A DNA stretch of 64,000 nt, from contig NZ_CP004078.1 in assembly GCF_000612505.1 (NCBI RefSeq), positions 395,001 to 459,000 on the forward strand, given 5' to 3'. The notes under the pieces were generated by a model that did no database searches, was not told where the DNA came from, and was given only the letters and a program-made list of their open reading frames with translations. Positions 16,954 to 44,799 of the stretch are shown in pieces. Every line of letters starts with the position of its first letter. The stretch's first letter is position 1. The position numbers and the translations under genes are program-made. This DNA comes from Paenibacillus sabinae T27 (GTDB lineage: Bacteria > Bacillota > Bacilli > Paenibacillales > Paenibacillaceae).

Positions 16954-17472
16954 CTACAGCAGAACCGGCTGCCACAGCACGGGCTCCGCGCCGCCTGCAA
17001 GGCTGGCCTGAATATCGATAATCCGCTGGTTGGAGCTGCCGCGGAAGCGAAGGGTCGTGTCCTTCAGGGCTTCCTCGAAGCGCCCGTCAATCAGCACCTG
17101 GCACAGAGACAGCAGCTTCCATTCGGGCGATCCCGGCATCGCCGCCAGCTCTTCGAAAGTGTAGCCGGTATAGATCCACACCGGGAAATCCGGCAGTGTT
17201 CCGCGCACCTCGCCAATGAACTCCGCAGCTTCCTCCGCGGAGAAAAAAGGATCGCCCCCCGCCAGCGTCAGACCGCTCAGCAGCGGATTGGCCGCCATGT
17301 CGCCGATGATCTGCCGCCGCCGCGAAGGGGTGAAGGGCTCGCCATACCCGAAATTCCAGGTTTCGGGATTGAAGCAGCCCGGGCAGCGGTGGCGGCAGCC
17401 GCTGATGAAGACGGCGGCCCGCAGCCCTTCGCCTTCGTTAATGGATTCCGGGTAGTAGCCGCATATATTCAT
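16954..17472 (-). CDS. nrdG: anaerobic ribonucleotide reductase activating protein
   Basis: A 172-residue radical-SAM enzyme that installs the glycyl radical on NrdD. The cluster motif CRHRCPGC (CxxxCxxC) lies near residues 26-33, followed by the GGDPFF segment near residue 72, and the short length is typical of NrdG. Its ATG overlaps the nrdD stop codon (ATGA), so the two genes are translationally coupled in one operon. Both are controlled by the leader upstream of nrdD. Confidence 0.94.
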   Translation of the reverse strand: MNICGYYPESINEGEGLRAAVFISGCRHRCPGCFNPETWNFGYGEPFTPSRRRQIIGDMAANPLLSGLTLAGGDPFFSAEEAAEFIGEVRGTLPDFPVWIYTGYTFEELAAMPGSPEWKLLSLCQVLIDGRFEEALKDTTLRFRGSSNQRIIDIQASLAGGAEPVLWQPVLL

Positions 17473-19454: not shown

Positions 19455-19530
19455 TGTGCAGTTCTCCTCTCCGTAACGTCCCTGTCTTAAACTTTGGTTG
19501 TCTTGCCTTCGGGTACCTTTCCTGCATTCC

Positions 19531-19567
19531 AAAAAGGCATTTCCCGCCAAAGAACGCAGAAAATGCC
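19531..19567 (-). terminator. terminator in the nrdD leader (riboswitch platform)
   Basis: On the minus strand GGCATTTTC pairs with GGGAAATGCC across a 17-base loop, followed by T5. It lies between the cobalamin aptamer and the nrdD start, where ligand-controlled termination would act. The antiterminator pairing was not traced. Confidence 0.85.
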
Positions 19568-19672
19568 ACTATGCAAGCCCGGCCCGATTGAACAAAGCCC
19601 GGTCATCTAAAAATACATAGCGGACACCTCTCCTGTTCCTCGCAGGCGCTGGTATGAATGGTGTCTCTAAGA

Positions 19673-19876
19673 AACAGGCAGGTCTCCTGGCTTCCGTCTG
19701 TTCTTCCGGCGCCTTCCCGAAGAGCTGCCTTGCGCTCTCAGTGGCCCTATGCCGGAAGATGCCGCCCTCGTCCTCGCCTGAGGAGGGGCATCCGGTTACA
19801 GTGGCGGGACCGCAGCGGATTCGCACCGCGCTTCCCTATTAAGCTCGAACTCTCCGTCAGAGAGTCAAGCACCTGA
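19673..19876 (-). ncRNA. cobalamin riboswitch upstream of nrdD
   Basis: The minus strand reads GGTGCTT at the 5' side, then TTAATAGGGAAGCGCGGTG, AATCCGCTGCGGTCCCG, the GCCACTGTAACCGG block, and at the 3' end the B12 box AAGCCAGGAGACCTGCC. These are the conserved segments of the cobalamin aptamer in order. It is followed by an intrinsic terminator, so adenosylcobalamin would be expected to switch nrdDG off. Confidence 0.95.
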
Positions 19877-19878
19877 TT

Positions 19879-19894
19879 CTACTATATTTTGTTG
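19879..19894. promoter_or_regulatory. NrdR-type box 1
   Basis: CTACTATATTTTGTTG matches the NrdR consensus ACACTATATATTGTGT in most positions. It overlaps the probable -10 region (TATAGT on the minus strand) and sits directly upstream of the riboswitch. Confidence 0.65.
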
Positions 19895-30477: not shown

Positions 30478-30907
30478 TGTATGTTGACGGAAACGGCGAT
30501 GTCCGTAAGGGGCAGCGGCGCTTCCGTGCATTATATTTAATCCTCCCGCCGTTCGTGAGCAACGGGCTTCTTACTCCTCGTCTATTTCCAGCAGCCGTAT
30601 GGCGATAATAGATTCTGCATCCAAAACGACAAAAGCCCTACCTCTCTTTTGCCCTTGCGGCTCCAATGACCGCGCCAGTGTGAGTCGGAAAATAACAGCT
30701 TGAATATCGTCTCATAAATAAGGAAGAGTCGCATAAGAAAATGTAAAATTTTCAATAAAAGAAACCGATAAACACAGTAAGTTGCTCCTGTGCGATCCTT
30801 TTTTAACGAATTTTTCATATGGGGAAAATCAAATATTACTATAGTTTAATGCATTGTAAACCGAAATGCAAGCGGCATAGTGAGAAAAAAAGGAAAATGG
30901 AGGAGAA
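30478..30907. other. gene-free stretch
   Basis: About 430 bases with no supported gene. A minus-strand open frame at 30582-30818 has no ribosome-binding site and an implausible composition. The right half is AT-rich and must contain the promoter of the HD-GYP gene, but I could not fix its elements. Confidence 0.5.
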
Positions 30908-32579: not shown

Positions 32580-32957
32580 ATGAAACGCGCAGATGTGCTG
32601 CTCGTCGCCGTCGTATTGATCGCTGCGCTCGCTTTTCTTGTCCCCCGTTATTTCGGTAACGATGCCAAGGAGAACGAGTTGGTAGCCAATATTACGGTGG
32701 ACGGCAAGCATTACCGTACCGTAAAGCTGACCAAAGAAGAACAGACCATTGATATCCGGACGGAACGCGGCTATAACATCCTTAAAGTCCATGATTACGG
32801 CATAGAGATGTATGATGCGGATTGCCCTGACAAGGTATGTCTGGGGTTTGGATTTATTTCCCGGCCCAAACAGACGATTGTCTGTCTGCCGCACAGGGTT
32901 CTGGTGGAAATCGCTAATCAGACAGGGGAGGACGAAATAGATGGGATTGTCAGGTAG
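32580..32957 (+). CDS. eetA: NusG domain II protein, EetA-like
   Basis: A 125-residue protein with one N-terminal TM helix (residues 5-23) and an extracytoplasmic NusG domain II. The family's cysteine-bearing core is present: CPDKVCLGFGFI near residue 81 and QTIVCLPHRVLVEI near residue 100. In Listeria the equivalent protein EetA is encoded next to EetB and is needed for flavin-based extracellular electron transfer; its chemistry is unknown. The next gene begins inside the last 17 bases of this one, so the two are co-translated. Start ATG follows AAGGGAGAA. Assignment rests on domain plus neighbourhood. Confidence 0.82.
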   Translation: MKRADVLLVAVVLIAALAFLVPRYFGNDAKENELVANITVDGKHYRTVKLTKEEQTIDIRTERGYNILKVHDYGIEMYDADCPDKVCLGFGFISRPKQTIVCLPHRVLVEIANQTGEDEIDGIVR

Positions 32958-33492
32958 CGAATCGACCCAGGCGCTGAAGAAGACGGTCATTATCGCGATT
33001 TTTTCTGCGGTGGCCGTCGTGCTGGGCATCGTGGAGGCCCAAATTCCTTTATCGGCGATGGGGCTGATGCCGGGGGCGAAGCTGGGCTTTGCCAACATTA
33101 TGATTTTGACCTGCATTTATTTTTTGCGCGGACGGGACGCCTTTATGCTTGTTATCCTGAAAACGCTTCTCACTGCTTTTATTCTCGGTACGTTCTCCAG
33201 CCTGCTGTTCAGCTTGTTCGGCTCGCTCCTCAGCTTTGCGGTCATGTTCCTTCTAATGAAGGGAGGGCGCAATCGGCTGAGTCTGATCGGGGTCAGCATT
33301 GCGGGCAGCATCGCCCATAATATCGGACAGCTGGCGGCGGCGTCGATCGTCATGGGCACCTCCAGTATTCTGTATTACTTACCAATCCTGCTCGTAACCG
33401 GAATTGTCACCGGTATCGCGGTCGGCTATGCGGTCCGCTATCTGGTGTCCTCATTGTCCAAAATATCGCTGTTCGAGGAATTTTTGCGCTAA
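32941..33492 (+). CDS. eetB: Gx-family membrane protein, EetB-like
   Basis: A 183-residue integral membrane protein with about five TM helices, of the Gx transporter family (also labelled heptaprenyl diphosphate synthase component I). Typical segments are GIVEAQIPLSAMGLMPGAKLGFANI near residue 29 and SIAGSIAHNIGQL near residue 118, which resemble S-components of ECF transporters. In Listeria EetB is essential for extracellular electron transfer. Here ECF ATPase and EcfT genes follow immediately, which supports a transport role. The ATG follows GGGGAGG within the end of eetA. Confidence 0.85.
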   Translation: MGLSGSESTQALKKTVIIAIFSAVAVVLGIVEAQIPLSAMGLMPGAKLGFANIMILTCIYFLRGRDAFMLVILKTLLTAFILGTFSSLLFSLFGSLLSFAVMFLLMKGGRNRLSLIGVSIAGSIAHNIGQLAAASIVMGTSSILYYLPILLVTGIVTGIAVGYAVRYLVSSLSKISLFEEFLR

Positions 33493-33524
33493 GCGCCGTC
33501 GCAGCCGCAGGGAGGGTGAACAAC

Positions 33525-34391
33525 ATGAAGGAATTGGACGGAAAATGCCATTCCGCAGGGCAAGCCCCTGACGCCATCGTGCTGGAGGACGTGTCGTTCG
33601 GCTATGATCCGGCGCAGCCGATTCTGCACGGGATCTCGCTGAGCATCCCACAGGGGCAATGGGTCAGCCTGGTGGGAGAGAGCGGCTCGGGGAAGTCGAC
33701 GCTGGCGAAGCTGCTGAATGCGCTGCTTCCCAAAAGCGCCGGGGAAATTACCGTGTGCGGCGAGAGGCTGAGCGAAGACACCATCTTAAATATCCGCCGG
33801 AAAATCGGCATGGTCTTCCAGAACCCGGATAACCAGTTCGTCGGGGAAACGGTCGAGGAGGATATTCTGTTCGGTCTGGAAGGCCTTTGTTTGTCCAGGG
33901 AGGAGATGGACCGCCGCCTGCGGCTCTATGCCGGCAAGCTCGGGATTACCGGGCTGCTGGCCAAGCACCCCGGGGAGCTGTCCGGAGGACAGAAGCAGCG
34001 GGTAGCGATTGTCTCCATTCTGGCGATGGAGCCGGGCGTCGTCATCTTTGACGAGGCCTCTTCCATGTTGGACGAAGAGAGCCGGAACGGGCTGCTGGAC
34101 ATATTGCGGGACATGCATGCCGAAGACTACACCATTCTGATGATTACGCATGACGCCGATGAAATCATGGCCTCGGAGCGTGTGCTCGCGCTGTGCGGGG
34201 GCGGGCTGGCGGGGGATATGACGCCGGCCGAGCTGTTCAGCAGCCCGGGGCTGCTGGAAGCGTGCCGCCTGCATGCGCCGTACGCCTGGGAGCTCAGCCG
34301 CGAGCTTGAGGCCCGGGGAATTACGATCGGCGTACCCGCCAGTGAAAAGGAGCTTATCGAAACACTATGGCCATTCAACTCCAGCAAGTAA
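33525..34391 (+). CDS. ecfA1: ECF transporter ATPase 1
   Basis: A 288-residue ABC ATPase of energy-coupling-factor type. Walker A is GESGSGKST near residue 50, the ECF-typical Q-loop region is MVFQNPDNQFVGETVEEDI, the signature is [10 protein letters not shown] and Walker B is VVIFDEASSMLD. ATG at 33525 follows AGGGAGGG; the GTG at 33516 lies inside that site. Starts 32 bases after eetB and overlaps ecfA2 by 25 bases. Works as a heterodimer with EcfA2 to energise EcfT and an S-component. Confidence 0.92.
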   Translation: MKELDGKCHSAGQAPDAIVLEDVSFGYDPAQPILHGISLSIPQGQWVSLVGESGSGKSTLAKLLNALLPKSAGEITVCGERLSEDTILNIRRKIGMVFQNPDNQFVGETVEEDILFGLEGLCLSREEMDRRLRLYAGKLGITGLLAKHPGELSGGQKQRVAIVSILAMEPGVVIFDEASSMLDEESRNGLLDILRDMHAEDYTILMITHDADEIMASERVLALCGGGLAGDMTPAELFSSPGLLEACRLHAPYAWELSRELEARGITIGVPASEKELIETLWPFNSSK

Positions 34392-35263
34392 GCTATACGT
34401 ATTCGCAGCAGAGTCTGTGGCGGCAGGCGGCGCTGCATGGAATCGATTTTGAGCTTCCCCAAGGGACGATGGTCGGCATTGCCGGAGCCACCGGGTCCGG
34501 CAAATCAACGCTGCTTCAGCTGTTCAACGGGATTCTAAAGCCGACAGAGGGAACGGTGTCGGTTCTCGATATTACGCTCCGGGCCGGAGAGAAGCCGCCC
34601 AAGCTGCTGCCGCTCAGGCGGCGCGTCGGGCTGGTCTTCCAATTCCCGGAGCAGCAGATGTTCGCCGAGACGGTGGAGAAGGATCTGTGCTTCGGTCCGC
34701 TCAACTTCGGCATGAGCCCGGATGAGGCGCGGGAGCGCGCGCGTCAGGCAATGCTCGATATGGGGCTGGACCTTGCGCTGCTGGAACGGAATCCGTTCCG
34801 CCTGAGCGGCGGGCAAATGCGCAAGGCGGCTATCGCCTCGGTGCTGGCGGCCGATCCCGAGATTATTGTGCTGGACGAGCCGACAGCCTCGCTGGACCCG
34901 GTCAGCCGCAGAGAGCTGATCGGGCTGCTCACGCGCCTCTGCCGGGAGCGCGGGCGGACGGTGATTATCGTCACGCACCGGATGGATGAGCTGCTGCCCC
35001 ATGCCGACCGCTGGATCATGCTGGACCAGGGCCGGACCGCCTTTCAGGGCGGCATCCGGGAGCTGGCGGCGGACCCGTCTTTGCTGACGCGCTGCGGGCT
35101 GGCGGTGCCAGACTCGCTGCGCTACTGGCGGGCTGTTGCCGACCGGCTGGGCCTTGAGGGCGAAGAGCCGCGGTTGACGCCGGAAGGCTTGGCCGAGCTA
35201 ATTGCGTCGCGTCGAAGCGGCAATTCCGGCCGGGCTGGCGAACAGGGGGCCGGCTATGAATGA
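34367..35263 (+). CDS. ecfA2: ECF transporter ATPase 2
   Basis: A 298-residue ECF-type ABC ATPase, with Walker A GATGSGKST near residue 37, LVFQFPEQQMFAETVEKDL, signature LSGGQMRKAA and Walker B IIVLDEPTASLDP. The start lies within the last 25 bases of ecfA1, and its end overlaps ecfT by 8 bases, so the three are translationally coupled. Firmicutes usually encode the general ECF module near ribosomal protein genes. A second copy here would be dedicated to the substrate of this locus. Confidence 0.92.
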   Translation: MAIQLQQVSYTYSQQSLWRQAALHGIDFELPQGTMVGIAGATGSGKSTLLQLFNGILKPTEGTVSVLDITLRAGEKPPKLLPLRRRVGLVFQFPEQQMFAETVEKDLCFGPLNFGMSPDEARERARQAMLDMGLDLALLERNPFRLSGGQMRKAAIASVLAADPEIIVLDEPTASLDPVSRRELIGLLTRLCRERGRTVIIVTHRMDELLPHADRWIMLDQGRTAFQGGIRELAADPSLLTRCGLAVPDSLRYWRAVADRLGLEGEEPRLTPEGLAELIASRRSGNSGRAGEQGAGYE

Positions 35264-36047
35264 GCGTTTGCTGCTCGGCAGAAGCATTGAGACCGGCTCT
35301 TGGGTCCATAAGCTGGACCCCCGGTCGAAACTCGCCGGCATGCTGCTGTACTCCGCCGCCATTTTGCTGTCCCGGTCCTGGCCGGCCATGGCGCTGATCG
35401 CAGCGATCTCGGTGGCGGTGGCGGCGTCCACCCGGATTCCGCTCAAATATTATGTAATGGCGGCCAAGCCGCTTCGATATTTAATGCTGTTTATTCTTAT
35501 CGTCCAGCTGCTGACGGTCAAGGAAGGAGCGGTCCTGGTGACCGTCGGCTCCTTCTCCCTTTACGAGGATGGCCTGAGGCTTGGCGCGTTCGCGGCGATC
35601 CGCACGTTTCTGCTGGTCGCCTTTACCGCACTGCTGACCTTTACGACCACGCCGGCCCGGTTGAACCAGGGCCTTGAAGGGATCTTGTCGCCGCTCCGCT
35701 TTATCGGGCTTTCACCGGCCCGCTTTACGCTGATGATCAGTCTCGCCCTGCGGTTCATTCCGACGATTCTGGACGAGTCGGAAATTGTGCTGAAGGCGCA
35801 GGCTTCGCGCGGAGCCGATTTAAGCGAGCTGCCGCTTAAGGAGAAAGGGCGGATGCTGGTGACGCTGCTCGTTCCGGTCATTGCCGGAGCGTTCCGGCGG
35901 GCTCAGGATCTGGTCTATTCCATGGAAGCCCGGGGATTCCGGATGGATGCCCCCCGTTCGCGGTATCACCGCCTGAAATGGGGCCGGGCGGATTCTTTTT
36001 TTATCGCTATATTTATTCTGGCAGGCCTTGCCGCCGCTATCCTGTAA
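35256..36047 (+). CDS. ecfT: ECF transporter transmembrane protein EcfT
   Basis: A 263-residue membrane protein with about five to six TM helices and the two coupling-helix motifs of EcfT: AQASRGADLS near residue 183 and YSMEARGFRMD near residue 223 (Ala-Arg-Gly signature). It couples the EcfA dimer to an S-component. The ATG at 35256 is chosen over an earlier in-frame ATG at 35202 that lies within ecfA2. The only S-like protein in the operon is the Gx-family EetB, which makes that a candidate partner. Confidence 0.92.
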   Translation: MNERLLLGRSIETGSWVHKLDPRSKLAGMLLYSAAILLSRSWPAMALIAAISVAVAASTRIPLKYYVMAAKPLRYLMLFILIVQLLTVKEGAVLVTVGSFSLYEDGLRLGAFAAIRTFLLVAFTALLTFTTTPARLNQGLEGILSPLRFIGLSPARFTLMISLALRFIPTILDESEIVLKAQASRGADLSELPLKEKGRMLVTLLVPVIAGAFRRAQDLVYSMEARGFRMDAPRSRYHRLKWGRADSFFIAIFILAGLAAAIL

Positions 36048-36087
36048 CTGGAAAATCACCGGGGGAGTCACATAAGGAGGAACACGA

Positions 36088-38025
36088 ATGACGCGTTATT
36101 TTAATGGGAGAGAAATTGAACTGCTGGCTCCGGCCGGCACCTTTGACATTTTTAAAGAGGTTGTGAAGTCCCGCTGCGATGCGGTCTATCTTGGCGGCCC
36201 CGTGCTGAATATGAGAATGATGCGAAAGGGCTACAATCTATCTCTGGAGGAGATTGCACAGGCGCTCGACATCGCCCACGGCCTTGGCAAAAAGGTGTAC
36301 ATTACCGTCAACAACCTGTTCAGCGAAGAGGAGACCCGGGAAGCCCGTGAATATCTCACTTATCTGGAGAGTATCCAGCCGGACGCGCTGATCGTACAGG
36401 ATATGGCGGTTCTGGGGCTGATCCGGGAAATGGGACTTACGCTGCCCATCCATGCTTCAGTTATGATGAATGTACATAATCTGGAGATGATCCACGCGCT
36501 GCGCGAGCTTGGCGTAAGCCGCGTCGTCACCTCGCGGGAGATGGATCTGCAGACGGCGAAGCTGCTGGGATCAGCAAGCGGAATGGAGCTGGAGTATTTC
36601 GTCCACGGCGATATGTGCTCCGTCCACGGTGCGAACTGCTATTACAGCTCCCATGTGTTCGGGATGAGCAGTAACCGGGGCAAATGCATGAAGCCGTGCC
36701 GCTGGGATTACCGGATTAAAAAAGACGGCTACATCTTCCCGGCGGAATACCCGCTCGCGGTTAAGGATATGTTCATGTATGAGAATCTGCCGGAGCTGAT
36801 CGAATCGGGAATCACCTCGTTCAAAATCGAAGGCCGCATGCGCGACAAGGATTTCATGGTGATGCTCGTCAACAGCTACGGCGAGGCGATCGACCGGTAT
36901 ATCGACGATCCTGTCGGGTTTGACCGCACGGTGGATTCGAAGCTGCTGTACAATAACCGCAAGCGTGATTTCTCCACCGCTTACGCCTTCGGCAAGCCGG
37001 GACTCCGGAACATTAACCGGCGGTTTGAAGGGACCGGCAAGTTCTACAGCACAGGCAAGGTGTTCAGCACGCCGACTGCGGAGCGCGAACTGTCCGAAGA
37101 GCGCGTGGAGCAGCTCCGGGAACGGCTGGCGGCGGAGGGGAACCAAGACCGCGCGCGGACGAACCCCGAGCTGGCGGTACGCGTCAACAACATGGCGCAG
37201 GCCAAGGCCGCCCTGGAAGCAGGGGTGGAGCATCTGTATCTGTCCGGCGATGTCTACGAGCCCGACCGTCCGTTCACCAAGCGTGACGTAATGGAGCTGG
37301 GCTCGATCAAAGGGAAGACGAAGCTGATTCTGGGACTGCCTCGAATGATGACGGAGCTGCATTTTGACCAATACGACCAGCTGCTCATTCATGGGGAACG
37401 TCTCCCGATCGACGGTCTGCTCGTTACGAATCTTGGCGCCATCCGCCGCTATAACGGAACCGGTTATCCGCTGATCGGAGACGCCAGCCTCAACATTTAC
37501 AACACGCTCTCCGCCGGGCTGTACGCAGGGCTGGGACTTAAGCGGATCAGTGTATCGCCCGAGATGACGCTGGAGCATTTTGCGTCCTTTGCCTCCCGCT
37601 GCGACCTGCCGCTGGAAATGGTGGTGCACGGTTCGCCGGCGCTGATGTATATGGAGCATGATTTATACGAAAATACCGAAGTGATGGAGCCGATCGGCGA
37701 GGAAGACAACCGTTATGTAAGCAATGATGTGCTTGTCTTGATGACCGATAAAGGGGAAAATCCGGTGTACCGCGACCAGCATGGACGCTGCCATCTGCTG
37801 TTCTCCAAAGAGCTGTGCTATTTGCCGGTGCTCAGTGAGCTGAATGCGGCAGGCATCTCCTGCTTCCGCATCGAGGGCGCGACCTATACGCCGGAGCAGC
37901 TGAGCGCAATCCTGAATGCCTATCGGAACGCCATAAGCGGCATTTCCGGTACCGGAGAAGAAGCGGCAGAGAGCCTGGAGCCTGTCTATGCGGGCTATAC
38001 GCTCGGATCGCTGCAATTCAATTAA
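36088..38025 (+). CDS. U32-family protein with Cys cluster
   Basis: A 645-residue member of the peptidase U32 family. Residues 12-35 (LLAPAGTFDIFKEVVKSRCDAVYLGG) open the barrel, and four cysteines of the U32 signature are present (C177, C184, C200, C204), expected to hold an iron-sulfur cluster. Known U32 proteins include the tRNA and rRNA hydroxylation factors TrhP and RlhA and the oxygen-independent ubiquinone hydroxylation proteins UbiU and UbiV. A peptidase role is doubtful. It starts 40 bases after ecfT behind AAGGAGG. In a quinone-related cluster, a role in anaerobic hydroxylation is conceivable but unsupported. Confidence 0.88.
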   Translation: MTRYFNGREIELLAPAGTFDIFKEVVKSRCDAVYLGGPVLNMRMMRKGYNLSLEEIAQALDIAHGLGKKVYITVNNLFSEEETREAREYLTYLESIQPDALIVQDMAVLGLIREMGLTLPIHASVMMNVHNLEMIHALRELGVSRVVTSREMDLQTAKLLGSASGMELEYFVHGDMCSVHGANCYYSSHVFGMSSNRGKCMKPCRWDYRIKKDGYIFPAEYPLAVKDMFMYENLPELIESGITSFKIEGRMRDKDFMVMLVNSYGEAIDRYIDDPVGFDRTVDSKLLYNNRKRDFSTAYAFGKPGLRNINRRFEGTGKFYSTGKVFSTPTAERELSEERVEQLRERLAAEGNQDRARTNPELAVRVNNMAQAKAALEAGVEHLYLSGDVYEPDRPFTKRDVMELGSIKGKTKLILGLPRMMTELHFDQYDQLLIHGERLPIDGLLVTNLGAIRRYNGTGYPLIGDASLNIYNTLSAGLYAGLGLKRISVSPEMTLEHFASFASRCDLPLEMVVHGSPALMYMEHDLYENTEVMEPIGEEDNRYVSNDVLVLMTDKGENPVYRDQHGRCHLLFSKELCYLPVLSELNAAGISCFRIEGATYTPEQLSAILNAYRNAISGISGTGEEAAESLEPVYAGYTLGSLQFN

Positions 38026-38066
38026 ATTTTAAATATATATAAGCTGAACTTAAGATTTTCTCATCA

Positions 38067-38228
38067 GATATCAGTCGTAACTACGAGGAACGTTTGGACT
38101 TCCGGCCGCTGTTGTCTTCAGATTTCTCGATTTAACCCGCTCTTCGCGGATGAAATCCGAAGACAAAGGCGATCGCTATCGCTCCTACAGTTCCAAACTT
38201 CCCCTTCGTTACTCCTTACCCTGATGTC
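38067..38228. repeat. structured interspersed repeat, copy B
   Basis: Second copy of the element at 13713-13872. TTGTCTTC-A-GATTTC pairs with GAAATC-C-GAAGACAA around CCGC-TCTTC-GCGG. GTTTGGA (left) and TCCAAAC (right) close an outer stem, and the edges read GATATCAG and CTGATGTC. Two stem pairs differ from copy A by compensating changes. It lies between the U32 and aminotransferase genes. Confidence 0.78.
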
Positions 38229-38308
38229 ATTTTTTAAAGTTCATCGTATATAGTATCGTAGAAGAAAGACGGGCGGACGAAACTCTCAGAAAAGGGGGAC
38301 TAGAAGGC

Positions 38309-39619
38309 ATGAACGAGAAGGAAATCATCGGGAGAGAGGCCGTCGCGGCCAAGCGTAAGCAATATTTTTATCCTTGTACACAGCACTTTTACCGGAATTC
38401 GCCGCAGCTTGTGCGCGGATCAATGCAGCATGTATATGACGAGAACGGGAAAAAATACACCGATTTCTTCGCCGGGGTGTCGGTGGTCGCCTGCGGCCAC
38501 TGCAATCCGGCGATTACGGAGCGGACCATTCACCAGCTGCAGCAGCTGCAGCATACGACGACCATCTATCTGACCCAGCCGAACGTCGATCTGGCGGAGC
38601 GGCTGGAGAAGGTTCTTCCCGGCGAGCTTAGACGCACGTTCTTCGTGAACAGCGGCTCCGAGGCCAACGAGGGAGCGATGCTGCTGGCACGGCTTCATAC
38701 CGGCCGTAAAGGATTTATTGCGCTGGAGAGCGGGCTGCACGGCCGGACCAATCTGACAATGAGCGTAACAGGGCTGTCCATGTGGCGGACCGATAAATAT
38801 CTGGACGAGGATGTCACCTTTATCCGGCGTCCCTATGACCCGGAGCTGACGCCAGCGCAGGCGGCGGAGCGGTCTCTTGAGGATTTGAAAAAAGTGCTTG
38901 AAGAGAAGGGAGATACGATTGCCGCCATGATCGCCGAGCCGATTCAGGGCAACGGCGGGATGATCCTGCCGGAGCTATCGTACTTCCGCTCGGTCAAGAC
39001 GCTGCTTGATCAGTACGGCGTCCTGCTGATTGCCGACGAGATTCAGACCGGCTTCGGGCGCACGGGCACCATGTTCGCCATGGAGCATTTCGGCGTAGTG
39101 CCGGACATCATCACGATGGCGAAGGCGCTCGGCAACGGCGTGCCGGTAGCGGCCTTTGCGACCAATGACGACATCGCCCGTTCCCTGAACACGCCGTCCG
39201 CCTCCACCTTCGGCGGAAATCCGGTATCGGCGGCCACGGCGCTGGCCGTGCTCGACTACATCGAGGCGGAGCGGCTCCCCGAGCGGGCGGAGCGGCTGGG
39301 CGCGAAGCTGAGGGAAGGGCTTCTGGACCTTCAGCGCAGTTATCCGGGCACAATCGCCGATGTGCGGGGAGCGGGCCTTATGCTGGGCGCCGAGCTGCGC
39401 GCCGGCGGAGCGGCGGAAAACGCGGCCTTGACGGATGAAGTGCTCGAAGAAATGAAAGACCGGGGATATTTGATCGGCAAGAACGGAGTGGGCCGAAATG
39501 TCCTGGCCTTCCAGCCGCCGCTCGTTATCACCGAAGAAGATATCGGCGGGCTGCTTCAGGCGCTGGACGGGACACTGGCCCGCATTCTGGCCGAAGCGGC
39601 GCCTTCGGCGGACGTGTAG
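38309..39619 (+). CDS. class III PLP-dependent aminotransferase
   Basis: A 436-residue fold-type I aminotransferase of the ornithine/AGXT2 group, transferring an amino group between an omega- or alpha-amino donor and a keto acid. Recognisable parts are FFAGVSVVACGHCNP near residue 52, FVNSGSEANEGAMLLAR near residue 111, LIADEIQTGFGRTG near residue 240 (PLP-binding Asp), and the Schiff-base Lys in MAKALGNGVP near residue 273. It resembles alanine-glyoxylate type enzymes, but substrate is undetermined. The start follows AAAAGGGGGAC. It precedes the UbiA gene by 52 bases. No clear functional link to electron transfer. Confidence 0.88.
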   Translation: MNEKEIIGREAVAAKRKQYFYPCTQHFYRNSPQLVRGSMQHVYDENGKKYTDFFAGVSVVACGHCNPAITERTIHQLQQLQHTTTIYLTQPNVDLAERLEKVLPGELRRTFFVNSGSEANEGAMLLARLHTGRKGFIALESGLHGRTNLTMSVTGLSMWRTDKYLDEDVTFIRRPYDPELTPAQAAERSLEDLKKVLEEKGDTIAAMIAEPIQGNGGMILPELSYFRSVKTLLDQYGVLLIADEIQTGFGRTGTMFAMEHFGVVPDIITMAKALGNGVPVAAFATNDDIARSLNTPSASTFGGNPVSAATALAVLDYIEAERLPERAERLGAKLREGLLDLQRSYPGTIADVRGAGLMLGAELRAGGAAENAALTDEVLEEMKDRGYLIGKNGVGRNVLAFQPPLVITEEDIGGLLQALDGTLARILAEAAPSADV

Positions 39620-39671
39620 GCAGGCCGGCCTTTGGAAGCTACAAGAGAGAAGAGAATGGGGAAGAAACGCT

Positions 39672-40556
39672 ATGGTCATCATTAACGCCTGCAAACAAGC
39701 GGCGCATAAACTCAAATTATTCGGCGAGCTGGTCATGTTCTCGCATACGCTGTTCTCGCTGCCTTTTGCCATCATCTCCATGGTGTGGGCGGCTGGAGGC
39801 TGGCCTTCGGGCCGAATCATGCTGTGGGGGCTGATCGCTCTGATCGGCGCCCGCAACGGCGCCAACGCGTTCAACCGTCTCGTCGACCGCACCTTTGACA
39901 GCCAGAATCCCCGGACGGCGCACCGGCATCTTCCCCAGCGCCTGCTGGCGGAGAAGGAAGTGGCCGTCTTCGTTGCCGTCAACTACGCGATTTTTATATT
40001 CGCTTCGGGAATGCTGAATCTGCTGTGCCTGATCCTGTCGCCCGTGGCGATCGTTTTGATTTCAACTTACTCTTATACGAAGCGTTTCACCTACCTCAGC
40101 CATCTGTATCTGGGCTTTGTGATCGCTTCCGCTCCGATCGGGGCGTGGTTTGCGGTAACCGGGCAAATCGCCTTTACGCCTTTTGTCATCGGCACGGTCG
40201 TCATGCTGTGGATCGCCGGCTTCGATATTATCTACGGCACCCAGGACATCGATTTCGACCGCCGGGCCGGACTGTGGTCCATTCCCAGCTACTTCGGACT
40301 AAAGAATGCGCTCCGCATTGCGAAGGCGCTGCATTTTATCATGATTATGCTGCTGCTCTTCCTGTATGTGTGGCGCGGACTGGGCTGGATATATCTCGTC
40401 GGCATCGGCGCCGCGACCCTGCTTCTGATGACGGAGCACAACATCATCAAGCCGTCGAACCGGCAGCTGATGAAGGTCGCCTCTTACAATTTGAATCAGG
40501 TGATCAGCATGGTCATTTTGGCTTGTTCGCTGGTTGATTTCTTTTATGTAAGCTGA
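39672..40556 (+). CDS. UbiA-family prenyltransferase, DmkA-like
   Basis: A 294-residue integral membrane prenyltransferase with about eight TM helices. Both Asp-rich Mg-binding motifs are present: NGANAFNRLVDRTFD near residue 62 and DIIYGTQDIDFDRR near residue 180. The family attaches polyprenyl chains to aromatic rings in quinone synthesis (UbiA, MenA, MqnP). In Listeria's EET locus DmkA makes a dedicated demethylmenaquinone pool. Here the prenyl diphosphate synthase lies directly opposite. The exact aromatic acceptor cannot be read from sequence. The ATG at 39672 is chosen because the upstream open frame overlaps the aminotransferase gene. Confidence 0.87.
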   Translation: MVIINACKQAAHKLKLFGELVMFSHTLFSLPFAIISMVWAAGGWPSGRIMLWGLIALIGARNGANAFNRLVDRTFDSQNPRTAHRHLPQRLLAEKEVAVFVAVNYAIFIFASGMLNLLCLILSPVAIVLISTYSYTKRFTYLSHLYLGFVIASAPIGAWFAVTGQIAFTPFVIGTVVMLWIAGFDIIYGTQDIDFDRRAGLWSIPSYFGLKNALRIAKALHFIMIMLLLFLYVWRGLGWIYLVGIGAATLLLMTEHNIIKPSNRQLMKVASYNLNQVISMVILACSLVDFFYVS

Positions 40557-40601
40557 GCTTATCTATACGTTCCGGCACTCCAATGCAGGAAAAAGAATAC
40601 G

Positions 40602-40641
40602 AAAAAGGCGGATACTCCCGTGATGGGGTATCCGCCTTTTT
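40602..40641. terminator. bidirectional terminator between the two EET-like operons
   Basis: AAAAAGGCGGATAC pairs with GTATCCGCCTTTTT around TCCCGTGATGGG, with A and T runs on both sides. It separates the convergent ubiA-type and dmkB-type genes. Confidence 0.93.
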
Positions 40642-40664
40642 CATGGTAAAGAATTAAAAAAGAG

Positions 40665-41645
40665 TCAGCGGTCTCTGCCCGCAAAGAACGCAATCAGCGT
40701 CTCCAGATCGGCGTGCGCCGGATAGGAGGACAGTTGCTTCGCGATGACCGCCGCCTGTTCCAGATAACGGCGGCTCATTTCTTCCGTGCGGGCGAGCGCG
40801 CCGCTGCCGGAGATGGCCGCGAGAGCGTCCCGGACGTCGGCATCTGAAGAGCCGGGGCCGATGCGGCGGATGCGCGCTGCAAGCGCCGGGTCCTGCAGCG
40901 CGTAGATTACGGGCAGGGTGACCTGTCCGTGGCGTAGATCGCTGCCAGCAGGCTTGCCGAGCGTCTCGGACGATTGGGTGAAATCCAGCAGATCGTCCTG
41001 GATCTGAAAGGCGATGCCGAGCGCCTCGCCGAACGCGTACAGCGCCTCGGCCGTCTCTTCCGTGCTCTCGGCTGACAGAGCTCCCACACGAAGGCAGGTC
41101 GCCATCAGAAGAGCCGTTTTGTTGAGCGATTTATCCAGGTACTGCTCAAGCGTAAGATCATAGTCGTAGGCATGCTCCATCTGCTGGTATTCCCCAATGC
41201 ACAATTGGGCGGTGGCTATGGCCGACAGATCATGTACATAATGGGTCTTATCCCCGGCATGCTTGCTTAACAGTTCGATAACCCTCGCAGACATATAATT
41301 GCCGATATGGACGGCTGAGAGTACCCCCGTCTGCGTATGCAGGGCGGGACGTCCGCGCCGCAGCTTGGCATCATCGATAATATCGTCATGAACAAGCGAG
41401 GCGGCATGGATGAACTCGGCAGCCGCGGCCAGTTGGAGCGTGCGGCGTCTCTGTCCCTTCCGGCCAAAACGGCTTCCGACAATGACCATAAGCGGGCGAA
41501 GCCGTTTGCCTCCGGAACTGACAAGCTCCAGAACGCCTTTGGCCAGCGCCGAGCCTCCGGGCACATCCTTGTCGCGCGTGACCAGCCGTTCGATTTCAAG
41601 GTTAACTTCCGCAATGTCGATATTCAAGGCTTCATGCAGCTTCAT
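40665..41645 (-). CDS. polyprenyl diphosphate synthase, DmkB-like
   Basis: A 326-residue trans-prenyltransferase that elongates an allylic diphosphate with isopentenyl diphosphate to make the quinone side chain. It carries the first Asp-rich motif DDIID (residues 87-91) with the RRGRP that follows, and the second, QIQDDLLDF, near residue 216. It resembles HepT, the catalytic half of heptaprenyl diphosphate synthase. The Listeria EET locus encodes a comparable synthase, DmkB. A small HepS-like protein is encoded 7 bases upstream, suggesting a two-subunit enzyme. Confidence 0.9.
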   Translation of the reverse strand: MKLHEALNIDIAEVNLEIERLVTRDKDVPGGSALAKGVLELVSSGGKRLRPLMVIVGSRFGRKGQRRRTLQLAAAAEFIHAASLVHDDIIDDAKLRRGRPALHTQTGVLSAVHIGNYMSARVIELLSKHAGDKTHYVHDLSAIATAQLCIGEYQQMEHAYDYDLTLEQYLDKSLNKTALLMATCLRVGALSAESTEETAEALYAFGEALGIAFQIQDDLLDFTQSSETLGKPAGSDLRHGQVTLPVIYALQDPALAARIRRIGPGSSDADVRDALAAISGSGALARTEEMSRRYLEQAAVIAKQLSSYPAHADLETLIAFFAGRDR

Positions 41646-41652
41646 GTTGGCG

Positions 41653-42114
41653 CTATCCCACCTGTTCTATCGCTTTTTCCGAACGACGCTTTTTTTTAAA
41701 CTCGGCATTCAGGAATTGTCCGATTAGAGCTGTGAGGTCCAGCTCGCTGTAGTCTCCATTAGCTCTTCTGACTTGCTGCTGTTTAATATAAGGAGCCAGG
41801 AAGACGACGAAATCCAGCTCGCGGTGCTTTATGGCGAACTGAAGGTAAAAGCTGTATAAATAATCTCCATCAAGCACATTACGGATCAAATCGGGATGAT
41901 CCTCAGTGCATTCCATATGCCGGCGGGCAGCCAGCTCAAGAATGATGTACATGCCCATGAAGTGCATTTTGCGGCTGTATTCCAGGTTATAGCTGTCCAT
42001 TACCGAGAGCAGACCATCGCCTTCCGCCGGAGAGAAAGGAAGCTGAATTCCGGCGATGGGCGACAATTCAGCCTGAAGCAGCCGAAGAGTATCTCCAAAG
42101 AGTTGTCTGTTCAC
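41653..42114 (-). CDS. small HepS-like protein
   Basis: A 153-residue, mostly helical soluble protein with no signal peptide. The segment VLDGDYLYSFYLQFAIKH near residue 81 resembles the GDxLYSxYY region of HepS, component I of heptaprenyl diphosphate synthase, but the protein is shorter than HepS (about 250). It ends 7 bases before the prenyl synthase start, so the pair should be co-translated and may form a heterodimer. The N-terminus aligns poorly with anything I know. Family assignment is tentative. Confidence 0.6.
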   Translation of the reverse strand: MNRQLFGDTLRLLQAELSPIAGIQLPFSPAEGDGLLSVMDSYNLEYSRKMHFMGMYIILELAARRHMECTEDHPDLIRNVLDGDYLYSFYLQFAIKHRELDFVVFLAPYIKQQQVRRANGDYSELDLTALIGQFLNAEFKKKRRSEKAIEQVG

Positions 42115-42191
42115 AAGATTCTCTCCTTCTTGTCGGTTTTGCGGAAGCAGTCAAAAGCCTGGATCATCCTTACAAAACCTCTCTTAAATAA

Positions 42192-42224
42192 GGAGAGTAA
42201 TGTGCCTGAAAGACACATTACTCC
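42192..42224. other. hairpin between ndh2 and the HepS-like gene
   Basis: GGAGAGTAATGTG pairs with CACATTACTCC, with a two-base bulge, around CCTGAAAGA. No T-run follows on either strand, so it is not a classical terminator. It could be an RNA-processing or stability element inside the leftward operon. Confidence 0.5.
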
Positions 42225-42327
42225 ATTAAAGTTGATATTAATCTTGTATAAATCAACATAGAAAACACATAGATGACTTATATAATAGCAATTGAAAGTA
42301 CGGTAATCATTCAGACAATCCGCTGCT

Positions 42328-44211
42328 TCAGTCGGTGTACAGATACCATCGCCTTACAAGCGGAATTTTCTTCCACTGCTTCTTGAGCCAAGGCAGAACG
42401 TAGTAGTCGAGACCGAAGACGCTGCCGGAACCGCCGATGCAGGCGATTGCCGCCGCCACATACCACAGCATTTCCGTAGCTGCCATTTTGGTCGTCCAGA
42501 TCATGACCGCCATGCCTATCGTCGCAATGGAGGAAAGGGCGGTGAACAGTCCGACAATCAGCAGGATACCAAAGATGATTTCGGCGCATACCATGCCGAG
42601 CTGGAACCACTTGGCAAGAAACGTGTAGTTGCCGTCCGGTTTATAGAACAAGAGATCCATGAACCAGTTCGAAATGTTGTAGATGAACTTCGGAACCGGA
42701 AGCGCGGAAACCGCTTCTTTGGCCGTATCGACCGCCGATGCCGCCGATTGGGCGTCAACCGTTTCCTTGACGTTGCTTACCGCTTCGCTGGCCGCCGATG
42801 TTGCATCCTTAAGATAAGGGGCCGCCGGGATCAGGAAGATCTTGCTCCAGCCTTGGTCGATAATCTTCCGCAGCTTGTCAATGCCTTCATACAGCCACAT
42901 GCCGCCGAGCAGCATGCGAAGCGGAACGATCCAGAAGTTCGGCGAGCGCTTGGAGAAATATCCGCCGACGAAGCTTCTGCGGTTCTCCACATGGAAGAAC
43001 TCATGCATCATGTAAGTCCAGACTTTATTAAAGCCGGCTACACCGGACAGATAGTAAATGTTGATCATATGCTTGGCGAACATCGCCATGAATCCGGTGA
43101 GCATGAACATTTTGTTCGGAAGACCGACATTCGCAACGCCGTAGCGGCTTCCGATCGATACCATTGTGCCGTGGAAGGCCGGTTTATAAGCCTTTTTCGC
43201 GGTTCCGTTAATGTCGGCGACGATGTTGCCGGCAATCAGCGGCGCGGCAAGCTCGGCGTTCTCGACCATTTGCGGAACGGGACGCTGTTCGCCTTCGACA
43301 ATGTAGAAGATGTTGTCGCCGACAACATATACGTTCTTGTGGTCGACGCTTTCCAGATGCTCGTTGGTGACGATACGCTTGCGGCCTTGCTGCTGGACAT
43401 CAAGCTTACCCACCAGCTCGGAGCCTTCGACGCCCGCCGTCCAGACGATGGTGTTGGCTGCTACGACATTATTCTCGCCGAGAGCCACGCTTCCTTTGCC
43501 GACTTCGGTGATCTTGGCGCCGGTGACGATTTCCACGTTCAGCTTCCGCAGGTGCGCTTCGGCTTTACGGATCAGCTTCTCCGGCAGGATTGGCAGAATT
43601 TTCGGCGCCATATCAGCAACGATCAGCCGCACTTCCTTCGGATCGATGAAGAACTCTTTGCACAGCTCTTCGCGGTATTCCGCCATTTCGCCCACCAGCT
43701 CAACGCCGGTAAAGCCTGCGCCGACGATAACAAAGGTCAGCATGGAACGGCGAACTTCAGGCTTCTTCTCTTTGGCCGCCTGCGTGAACATGTCGCGGAT
43801 TTGGCGTTTCAGCGCAACGGCGTCATCATAGGACCAGAAAGAGAAGGTGTTCTCTTCAGCGCCGGGAATTCCGAAGAAGGTCGGCTTGCTGCCCGTGCCG
43901 ATAACGAGATAGTCGTATTCGTAGACGGCCTTCTCGGACGTCAGCTTCTTGCCCTGGAAGTCGACATTGCTAATCTCGTCAAGGACAACGTCCACTTTGA
44001 GGCCGGCAAAAATCTTCTTCAGGTCAATCTTGATCGAATCCTCGGGCGCGCGGTTTGCGGAGACCTCATGAAGCTCCGTCAAGAGCGTATGATAAGGATT
44101 CCGGTCGATCAGTTTGATTTCAATGTCTTTGTTGTTTTTCAATTTCTTGGCCAGCTTTTTGGCTGTAAGTACACCGCCGTACCCGCCGCCAAGAATGACG
44201 ATTCTCTTCAA
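42328..44211 (-). CDS. ndh2: NDH-2 NADH dehydrogenase with DoxX-like C-terminal domain, Ndh2 of EET type
   Basis: A 627-residue fusion. Residues 1-390 are a type II NADH:quinone oxidoreductase, with FAD-binding GGGYGG (8-13), NADH-binding VGAGFTGVELVGEMAE near residue 165, and VYVVGDN near residue 300. The C-terminal part has four or more TM helices in a DoxX-like region, interrupted by an Ala/Ser/Val-rich loop near residue 490. Ordinary NDH-2 lacks this tail; the same fusion and length characterise the Listeria EET NADH dehydrogenase Ndh2. Start is TTG behind GAGGTGAG. It would pass electrons to a dedicated quinone at the membrane. Confidence 0.92.
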   Translation of the reverse strand: MKRIVILGGGYGGVLTAKKLAKKLKNNKDIEIKLIDRNPYHTLLTELHEVSANRAPEDSIKIDLKKIFAGLKVDVVLDEISNVDFQGKKLTSEKAVYEYDYLVIGTGSKPTFFGIPGAEENTFSFWSYDDAVALKRQIRDMFTQAAKEKKPEVRRSMLTFVIVGAGFTGVELVGEMAEYREELCKEFFIDPKEVRLIVADMAPKILPILPEKLIRKAEAHLRKLNVEIVTGAKITEVGKGSVALGENNVVAANTIVWTAGVEGSELVGKLDVQQQGRKRIVTNEHLESVDHKNVYVVGDNIFYIVEGEQRPVPQMVENAELAAPLIAGNIVADINGTAKKAYKPAFHGTMVSIGSRYGVANVGLPNKMFMLTGFMAMFAKHMINIYYLSGVAGFNKVWTYMMHEFFHVENRRSFVGGYFSKRSPNFWIVPLRMLLGGMWLYEGIDKLRKIIDQGWSKIFLIPAAPYLKDATSAASEAVSNVKETVDAQSAASAVDTAKEAVSALPVPKFIYNISNWFMDLLFYKPDGNYTFLAKWFQLGMVCAEIIFGILLIVGLFTALSSIATIGMAVMIWTTKMAATEMLWYVAAAIACIGGSGSVFGLDYYVLPWLKKQWKKIPLVRRWYLYTD

Positions 44212-44259
44212 AAGGAACTCACCTCATTTGTCTGAATTAGCTGCAGGAAGGATCGTGAA

Positions 44260-44799
44260 TTACTTCGCTTGTTCCAGCGCTTTTTCTGCCAGAGTCCAGT
44301 ATTCGCCTACGCTGATGGATACGCCGGAGATGGCATCGGTTTTTCCTTCGGCGTTAAACGCAGGAGCTGCGCCTTTGTTGTCGATGTAGTACTGCTCGGC
44401 TTTGGCGACTTCCTCATGCCATTCGGCCAGGGCGGACGGATTTTTTTCTTTCATGCCATACTTGCCGTCTTTGGAGAACTGCTGCTTGTCATTGCCGTCT
44501 TTGTCGACGCCGGTGAATTTAACCGCGGATACGGCACCGTTCGACACGGTAACTTCAACAGTGGGCTTCCAGCCGCTCTTGGCGTCCATTTCGCCTTCGG
44601 CCTTATAAACGCCGTCCTTGTATTGTGCTGCGGATGCGTCAGGAGCTGTGCTTGCAGCCGGTGCTACGGATGCGGCAGGAGCCGTGCTGGCGGCTGGTGC
44701 GGTGCTGGCGGCAGGGGCGCCTTCGTTGCTGTTGCCACAGCCTGCGGCAAGCAAGCCGAGAAGCAGGGCGCTGGATACTACTGCAGTTGTTTTTTTCAT
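44260..44799 (-). CDS. FMN-binding-domain lipoprotein, PplA-like
   Basis: A 179-residue lipoprotein with a signal peptide and lipobox LLAAGC (Cys21). A low-complexity APAAST-type spacer of about 30 residues follows, probably crossing the cell wall, and then one FMN-binding domain. The motif DAISGVSIS (155-163) matches the ApbE flavinylation site DxxSGA[T/S]xT, with Val for Ala and Ser161 at the modified position. Listeria PplA, the terminal surface flavoprotein of EET, carries two such domains; this has one. It starts the leftward operon, 48 bases before ndh2, behind GGAGG. An FmnB/ApbE transferase must lie elsewhere. Confidence 0.87.
   Translation of the reverse strand: MKKTTAVVSSALLLGLLAAGCGNSNEGAPAASTAPAASTAPAASVAPAASTAPDASAAQYKDGVYKAEGEMDAKSGWKPTVEVTVSNGAVSAVKFTGVDKDGNDKQQFSKDGKYGMKEKNPSALAEWHEEVAKAEQYYIDNKGAAPAFNAEGKTDAISGVSISVGEYWTLAEKALEQAK

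What the first reader, a model, noticed from the sequence alone, without database searches (positions are those of the whole stretch)
32580..44799. Two convergent operons match a flavin-based extracellular electron transfer locus
Seen: within 12 kb are a NusG domain II protein, a Gx-family protein, a UbiA prenyltransferase, a polyprenyl diphosphate synthase, an NDH-2 with a DoxX-like tail, and an FMN-binding lipoprotein. Known: the Listeria EET system uses EetA, EetB, DmkA, DmkB, Ndh2 and PplA of these same types. Inference: the organism can pass electrons from NADH through a dedicated quinone to surface flavin. The gene order differs (two convergent runs meeting at a shared terminator). The FMN transferase FmnB/ApbE is missing from the window.
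Basis: partly seen in the sequence, partly recalled or inferred. Interest (0 to 1): 0.75.

Follow-up and report, generated by a model that had tools for sequence, protein, structure and literature searches.

The report
Electron-export genes with swapped quinone maker
A Paenibacillus bacterium carries the gene set that lets some Gram-positive bacteria push electrons out to iron or electrodes, but the part that would make the electron carrier in the membrane has been replaced by a different three-gene module whose product is not known.

Summary
All six named proteins are there; the two runs meet at a strong shared terminator. Ndh2's core falls in the EET clade (100/100 against 13 ordinary NDH-2s) and its tail is homologous to Listeria-type Ndh2. 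Missed: a complete ECF transporter beside EetA/EetB (in Listeria the FAD exporter) and a possible HepS-like partner of the prenyl synthase. The absent FMN transferase is elsewhere in the genome: an FmnB-like ApbE, of a type found in 44 of 45 EET genomes and 0 of 73 others. An EET operon in Paenibacillus is already published. What looks new is the quinone module. The UbiA is not MenA-type; it stands in a constant trio with a U32 protein and a class III aminotransferase (70 of 70 loci with enough DNA), and UbiA and U32 occur in the same 40 of 118 genomes, all with EET Ndh2. These genomes carry futalosine-route genes and no MenD over cut-off, so DHNA synthesis is not expected; yet 34 keep an unlinked MenA-type DmkA. 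The local lipoprotein lost one of two FMN domains and has an atypical flavinylation motif. What the trio makes is unknown.

The parts
32580..32957 (+). EetA-like (NusG domain II, extracytosolic)
   Evidence: PF07009 E 4.5e-31; 38% over 94 columns to a Listeria-type EetA, E 1.6e-18
32941..33492 (+). EetB-like ECF S component (predicted FAD export)
   Evidence: PF07456 E 5.3e-42; 37% to a Listeria-type EetB, E 1.6e-32
33516..34391 (+). EcfA ATPase
   Evidence: PF00005 E 5e-32; TIGR04520 288 bits, cut-off 315
34367..35263 (+). EcfA' ATPase
   Evidence: PF00005 E 1.2e-27
35256..36047 (+). EcfT (counterpart of FmnA)
   Evidence: PF02361 CbiQ E 1.3e-39
36088..38025 (+). U32 family protein; four Cys (177, 184, 200, 204) invariant in 9 aligned relatives
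   Evidence: PF01136 E 1.3e-89; alignment A3; same 40 genomes as UbiA2
38309..39619 (+). class III PLP aminotransferase
   Evidence: PF00202 E 1.1e-105; between U32 and UbiA in 70 of 70 named loci with enough downstream DNA
39675..40556 (+). UbiA-type prenyltransferase (UbiA2), TIGR01475 type, not MenA
   Evidence: PF01040; TIGR01475 272.6 bits, cut-off 180.8; tree
40601..40642 (.). shared bidirectional terminator
   Evidence: hairpin -31.3 kcal/mol, z -6.9; sequence
40665..41645 (-). polyprenyl diphosphate synthase (DmkB/HepT-like)
   Evidence: PF00348 E 6.2e-67; 38% to a Listeria-type DmkB, 36% to own HepT
41653..42114 (-). possible HepS-like small subunit (inferred from fold and place)
   Evidence: no Pfam family; model pLDDT 92.7; best Foldseek PDB hit 9kp1_A B. 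subtilis HepS, E 0.042
42328..44211 (-). Ndh2 with C-terminal membrane extension
   Evidence: C-terminal part matches that of a Listeria-type Ndh2, E 7e-26 in a two-sequence comparison; EET clade 100/100
44260..44799 (-). FMN-binding-type lipoprotein, single domain, motif DAISGVS

Best explanation
[quoted passage not shown] Proposed flow: NADH -> Ndh2 at the membrane -> a prenylated quinone made by UbiA2 with a chain from the PPS/HepS-like pair -> FMN on the surface lipoprotein (and on a second, unlinked PplA) -> ferric iron, free flavins or other outside acceptors. FAD for loading the lipoproteins leaves the cell through EetB with EcfT/EcfA/EcfA' (EetA as partner), and the unlinked FmnB-like ApbE attaches the FMN. 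Shown here by sequence: the family identities, the Ndh2 clade, gene linkage and co-occurrence, ApbE and PplA2 elsewhere in the genome. Inferred: all fluxes; that UbiA2 replaces DmkA (its precursor would be the futalosine-route 1,4-dihydroxy-6-naphthoate or a derivative changed by U32 and the aminotransferase); and that the HepS-like ORF partners PPS.
For: Families. Ndh2 core tree of 39 rows: 26 EET Ndh2 against 13 generic, 100/100; homologous C-terminal extension. 118 Paenibacillaceae genomes, own included: long Ndh2 in 45; among these an ApbE of the FmnB-like type (E 1.2e-88 or better) in 44, UbiA2 (69% identity or more) in 40, U32 (58% or more) in the same 40, MenA-type DmkA (59% or more) in 34; each in 0 of the other 73 (counted in 89). 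DmkA lies far from the EET genes, yet it and this ApbE type are absent from G480 and G434, the single Ndh2-less genomes of two otherwise positive genera (g4, g150). ApbE's best solved match is Listeria FmnB 7ESA, E 1.9e-68. Of six Paenibacillaceae loci without the trio, three carry a MenA-type gene instead (L057, L058, L086), two run off their contigs (L056, L087) and one (L088) has neither, its trio lying on another contig. Two EET loci outside the class pair a UbiA with UbiD rather than MenA (L134, L141). FAD export by EetB/FmnA/EcfAA' was shown in Listeria by PMC9973259 (abstract and passages). A Paenibacillus with such an operon reduces iron minerals (PMC10373932, section 16 read).
Against: No physiology for this strain. 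The local lipoprotein is diverged, has one domain, and its SGVS motif departs from the preferred G-A-T at two places, each change reported to lower flavinylation in model proteins; one of 21 related loci (L099) shows no lipoprotein at all beside Ndh2. In Listeria a clean eetA deletion had no phenotype; in L. plantarum dmkA and dmkB were scored as not required when DHNA or riboflavin was added, with only a minor loss of iron reduction with DHNA, so the quinone branch may matter less than the gene linkage suggests. G449 has the futalosine-route gene and no MenD over cut-off but a MenA-type gene in its locus, so the prenyltransferase type does not simply follow the naphthoate route. UbiA2 passes none of the three MqnP models and is not sister to Paenibacillus MqnP. 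No UbiD decarboxylase was seen in the window and eight own-genome stretches examined, a small part of the genome. The co-occurrence tests are not corrected for kinship.
Confidence: 0.78

Rival explanations
1. EET locus with an ordinary quinone: UbiA2 simply makes plain demethylmenaquinone from 1,4-dihydroxy-6-naphthoate, helped by a housekeeping UbiD decarboxylase; U32 and the aminotransferase do unrelated work and ride along.
For: Own genome has a MqnA-UbiX-MqnP cluster, and PF02621 (MqnA/MqnD) genes are in 117 of 118 genomes. UbiA2's nearest kin outside the family, seven tree rows, lie beside UbiD and UbiX without U32.
Against: U32-aminotransferase-UbiA stay together in 70 of 70 named loci with enough DNA, also when away from the EET genes (G457, L102). 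Related trios exist in other genomes of the phylum without EET genes in the stretch (L139, L142; with UbiD/UbiX in L137), and U32 lies beside UbiA in 14 of 27 loci found by UbiA outside the family, all one family code, f86. U32 and UbiA2 occur in the identical 40 genomes.
Confidence: 0.4
2. The locus powers flavinylated envelope reductases or ferric iron assimilation rather than respiration to outside acceptors.
For: EetB and ApbE also serve other flavinylated systems (PMC9973259 section 11). This genome has a second ApbE next to a small protein with an SGAT motif and a further membrane-type protein (read by eye).
Against: Ndh2 of the EET type is followed by the lipoprotein in 50 of the 58 named loci that show Ndh2, and a Paenibacillus with such an operon reduces iron minerals.
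Confidence: 0.15
3. The system is decaying in this lineage: the lipoprotein lost a domain and its motif is poor.
For: One domain here (179 aa); two in the partial P. zanthoxyli and P. forsythiae proteins; only a 107-aa piece listed for P. durus. L099 shows no lipoprotein beside Ndh2.
Against: All 12 genes here are open frames. Single-domain lipoproteins also occur in P. sp. HN-1 and P. spiritus, and half-length PplA matches with open frames of 193-199 aa occur in G102, G077 and G113. The V in the motif is the norm in this family: 219 of 229 motif copies in the 120 listed homologues.
Confidence: 0.07

Closest known systems
Listeria monocytogenes flavin-based EET locus (Light et al. 2018, recalled, not held; PMC9973259: abstract, passages and section 11 seen)
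   Same: Ndh2 with membrane tail, EetA, EetB, ECF subunits, prenyl synthase, FMN lipoprotein, ApbE (the last outside the window)
   Different: Convergent order; EcfA/A'/T in the locus; UbiA2-U32-aminotransferase instead of a MenA-type DmkA; HepS-like ORF; single-domain SGVS lipoprotein; ApbE and a MenA-type DmkA unlinked; futalosine-type host
Paenibacillus sp. Cedars EET operon (PMC10373932, section 16 read, other passages seen)
   Same: EET genes with ecfA1-ecfA2-ecfT in one operon and dmkA elsewhere; iron reduction seen
   Different: That section names no UbiA, U32 or aminotransferase in the operon; its genome was not examined here
L. plantarum FLEET locus (PMC9888254, passages)
   Same: Ndh2, EetA/B, PplA, DmkA/B; added DHNA supports EET
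   Different: MenA-type DmkA named; no U32-aminotransferase-UbiA mentioned in the passages seen
Futalosine-route MqnP/UbiX/UbiD enzymes (pathway chemistry recalled)
   Same: UbiA2 belongs to the wider UbiA-like family (TIGR01475); its kin lie beside UbiD and UbiX
   Different: UbiA2 is 41% identical to the cell's own MqnP and not sister to it
UbiU/UbiV/TrhP U32 hydroxylases
   Same: U32 domain with a conserved four-cysteine set (their iron-sulfur chemistry is recalled)
   Different: Scores far below those families' cut-offs (TrhP 173, UbiU 134, UbiV 67 bits); 645 aa; paired with an aminotransferase

Membership tests
Listeria-type flavin-based EET locus | Ndh2 of the EET clade with C-terminal membrane extension | tested here: met
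Listeria-type flavin-based EET locus | EetA and EetB homologues | tested here: met
   (homology, no tree)
Listeria-type flavin-based EET locus | ECF T and A subunits for FAD export | tested here: met
   (presence; export not tested)
Listeria-type flavin-based EET locus | polyprenyl synthase (DmkB) | tested here: met
Listeria-type flavin-based EET locus | MenA-type DmkA in the locus | tested here: not met
   UbiA is TIGR01475 type; MenA-type gene at 4,993 kb instead. I treat this as a variable part: L134 and L141 also have UbiA, L057 and L058 a MenA-type gene
Listeria-type flavin-based EET locus | PplA with two FMN domains and D-x-x-[S/T]-G-A-[S/T] | tested here: not met
   one domain, DAISGVS; an unlinked PplA with two DAVSGAT motifs exists
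Listeria-type flavin-based EET locus | FmnB/ApbE in the genome | tested here: met
   not in the window
Listeria-type flavin-based EET locus | electron transfer to outside acceptors | not testable with these tools
   needs Fe(III) or anode assays
MqnP (futalosine prenyltransferase) | passes curated MqnP models or groups with MqnP | tested here: inconclusive
   below all three cut-offs, but so is the cell's own MqnP; not sister to Paenibacillus MqnP
MenA/DmkA | hits to DHNA prenyltransferase models | tested here: not met
   no MenA model among the 19 families listed at E up to 0.01
HepS small subunit of prenyl synthases | HepS fold beside a catalytic subunit | tested here: inconclusive

The most novel reading that the evidence does not exclude
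The U32-aminotransferase-UbiA2 trio makes a chemically distinct, EET-dedicated quinone, for example a hydroxylated or amino-substituted naphthoquinone made without oxygen, so that the export chain has its own carrier insulated from the respiratory menaquinone pool. A linked reading: the unlinked MenA-type DmkA in these genomes without MenD lets them scavenge DHNA made by neighbours.
Probability: 0.2. Interest if true: 0.8.

Novelty: new variant of a known kind. Interest (0 to 1): 0.52.

Why it matters
It suggests that the quinone-making part of Gram-positive EET is a swappable module (MenA-type, UbiA with UbiD, or UbiA with U32 and aminotransferase). It makes testable whether EET uses a private quinone. 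It also predicts that many Paenibacillus can export electrons without making DHNA, and perhaps by using DHNA from neighbours.

Tried and rejected
Considered and dropped. (1) Chance cluster of redox genes: rejected by synteny. (2) Ordinary NDH-2: rejected by tree and tail. (3) UbiA2 as a duplicate of the cell's own MqnP: not favoured by the tree, whose deepest split is weak. (4) U32 as the ordinary paralogue: the genomes carry other U32 proteins at about 32-37% identity (own copy 34%). (5) HepS by sequence: no family hit, fold only, with no Foldseek match at E 0.001 or better. A profile search of U32 against PDB sequences found nothing at E 0.01, a PADLOC scan of three proteins found nothing, and the solved aminotransferases nearest to the window's one (phospho-lyase, acetylornithine, 4-aminobutyrate types) do not name a substrate. 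Literature searches listed no paper, by title and start of abstract, that joins Gram-positive flavin EET with a futalosine-type or U32-aminotransferase quinone module; (Paenibacillus + menaquinone + futalosine) held 0 papers; a 2026 survey of quinone pathways (PMC13386864, 12 passages) has no occurrence of Paenibacill or U32. The library holds open papers only. The 80 named loci were fetched by U32, so EET loci without U32 are not in that set.
Full report
Place and organism. The window is G000:C1:395001-459000 of a single-contig genome of 5,270,569 bases. Residues 340-627 of its Ndh2 are 95% and 94% identical to those of Paenibacillus zanthoxyli and P. durus, so it is a close relative of these; no name was given.

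What is there. In order on the plus strand: EetA-like, EetB-like, EcfA, EcfA', EcfT, U32 protein, class III aminotransferase, UbiA; then on the minus strand, converging: polyprenyl synthase, a 153-aa ORF, Ndh2, lipoprotein. An 18-bp hairpin flanked by A and T runs sits between the two runs.

Is it the EET system? Six loci from unnamed Bacilli genomes served as Listeria-type comparators. Five carry a PplA over NCBI's cut-off (5 of 398 genomes); the sixth (G102) has a half-length PplA below it. Their order is DmkB-EetB-(EetA)-Ndh2 diverging from PplA-FmnB-DmkA; in L061 and L071 no EetA was called. Window Ndh2 aligns with a comparator Ndh2 over nearly its whole length (35.6% over 630 columns). 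Its C-terminal part alone matches at E 7e-26 in a two-sequence comparison, while the 13 generic NDH-2 proteins stop at 392-417 residues. In a maximum-likelihood tree of the shared core (39 rows) the 26 EET Ndh2 and the 13 generic ones separate at 100/100; the program warns that the long Lactobacillales-type and Paenibacillaceae branches meet, so the order inside the EET side is less sure.

The missing flavin transferase. The genome has two ApbE genes. One (genome 1,440,434-1,441,576) has Listeria FmnB (7ESA, E 1.9e-68) as its best solved match (7ESA is FmnB with FAD). Of 118 Paenibacillaceae genomes, 45 have the long Ndh2. An ApbE of this type (E 1.2e-88 or better) is in 44 of these 45, the exception being the fragmented G405, and in 0 of the 73 others, which have weaker ApbE matches or none (Fisher 8e-32, not corrected for kinship). 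An ApbE lies beside eetA in 33 of 80 named loci (31 closest to one subtype, 2 to the own copy). In this genome it lies elsewhere. A second PplA with two canonical DAVSGAT motifs is at 5,047,610-5,048,464 next to a BioY/ECF cluster.

The quinone module. The UbiA is a TIGR01475-type enzyme (272.6 bits, cut-off 180.8) with no MenA model among its hits. The cell's own MqnP lies with MqnA, UbiX, HepS, HepT and, by eye, a MenG-like methyltransferase at about 3,459-3,464 kb. PF02621 (MqnA/MqnD) genes occur in 117 of 118 genomes and MenD over its cut-off in 1, G411 (117 of 118 have weaker matches, own best 61.7 bits against 244.2). G411 is the genome without PF02621, and its EET locus has a MenA-type gene in place of U32-aminotransferase-UbiA (L057). 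That fits a prenyltransferase that follows the host's naphthoate route, but G449 has PF02621, no MenD over cut-off and still the MenA-type gene (L058), so the rule is not strict.

UbiA2 (69% identity or more) is in 40 of 118 genomes and U32 (58% or more; two pieces in G456) in the identical 40, all within the 45 Ndh2 genomes. In three mixed genera the genes come and go with Ndh2: g3 5 of 10, g4 9 of 10, g150 10 of 11; in g152, g153, g155, g158 and g159 five Ndh2 genomes lack UbiA2. In 80 named loci fetched by U32, the order U32-aminotransferase-UbiA holds in 70 of 70 with enough downstream DNA. In G457 the trio lies on another contig than the EET genes and is still together (L102). Related UbiA-U32-aminotransferase sets lie in genomes of the same phylum but another class, without EET genes in the stretch (L139, L142) and once with UbiD and UbiX (L137); of 27 loci found by UbiA outside the family, 14 have U32 beside UbiA. 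In a tree of 59 UbiA rows the 21 EET-trio rows form one clade (100/100) next to seven UbiA beside UbiD/UbiX (96/89), not next to Paenibacillus MqnP; the deepest split is weak (47/84). One of those seven (L134) is itself in an EET locus with prenyl synthase, EetA, ApbE and Ndh2; L141 is another EET locus with UbiA and UbiD. So at least three quinone modules occur with this EET core.

A MenA-type DmkA (59% identity or more to the own copy) lies unlinked in 34 of the 45 EET genomes and is in 0 of 73 others; the own copy is at 4,993,028-4,993,966. Six genomes with UbiA2 lack it or hold only a fragment, so UbiA2 may stand alone. Since these genomes have no MenD over cut-off, the DmkA presumably uses DHNA from outside, as L. 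plantarum can with added DHNA; but there dmkA and dmkB were scored as not required (PMC9888254, passages).

The lipoprotein. Most neighbours' proteins have two FMN-type domains (two hits in 45 of 50 named loci); here the first is gone. Partial P. zanthoxyli and P. forsythiae proteins still have both; P. sp. HN-1 and P. spiritus have one; L099 shows none beside Ndh2. In the 120 listed homologues 219 of 229 motif copies read G-V instead of G-A, mostly SGVS. A review reports about 50% flavinylation after A to V and a 10-55% decrease after T to S in model proteins (PMC12052999, section 8). So flavinylation here is likely but not assured.

Known or new. PMC10373932 (section 16) already reports a Listeria-like EET operon with ecfA1A2T in Paenibacillus sp. 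Cedars, with dmkA elsewhere, and iron reduction. The locus as such is therefore a known kind. That section does not mention a UbiA2-U32-aminotransferase trio, and my searches listed no paper linking such a module or the futalosine route with this EET system.

Verdict. A Listeria-type EET locus in a variant form: what it works like is well supported by homology, while the nature of its quinone is open and testable.

Noticed in passing
window 30616-30703 (+): Rfam BsrC sRNA match (61.8 bits) just upstream of the HD-GYP gene that precedes the locus.
   Followed up: no
window 17469-19891 (-): Cobalamin riboswitch (87.7 bits) directly upstream of an anaerobic ribonucleoside-triphosphate reductase (PF13597, E 2.4e-176): a B12 switch on a class III enzyme.
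   Followed up: partly
L062:5998-10492 (genome 5,044-5,048 kb): Second, canonical-motif PplA lies next to BioY and an ECF ATPase plus a fused ATPase-T protein, far from the EET locus.
   Followed up: partly
L134-L138, L141: UbiD-UbiA clusters outside the class, most with UbiX, sit beside an NMT1-type substrate-binding lipoprotein (Pfam-checked in L134 only), in several with an ABC ATPase and permease; possibly a precursor importer.
   Followed up: partly
L060:16861-19120 and L070:1933-4113: Two Listeria-type EET loci have a pair of shorter U32 proteins nearby.
   Followed up: no
P0239 (P. durus): The lipoprotein homologue listed for P. durus is only 107 aa, ending inside the first domain.
   Followed up: no
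window 42194-42224 (-): A 14-pair hairpin between Ndh2 and the 153-aa ORF could split the minus-strand run into two transcripts; the scan found fewer such sites than its shuffles, so this is weak.
   Followed up: no
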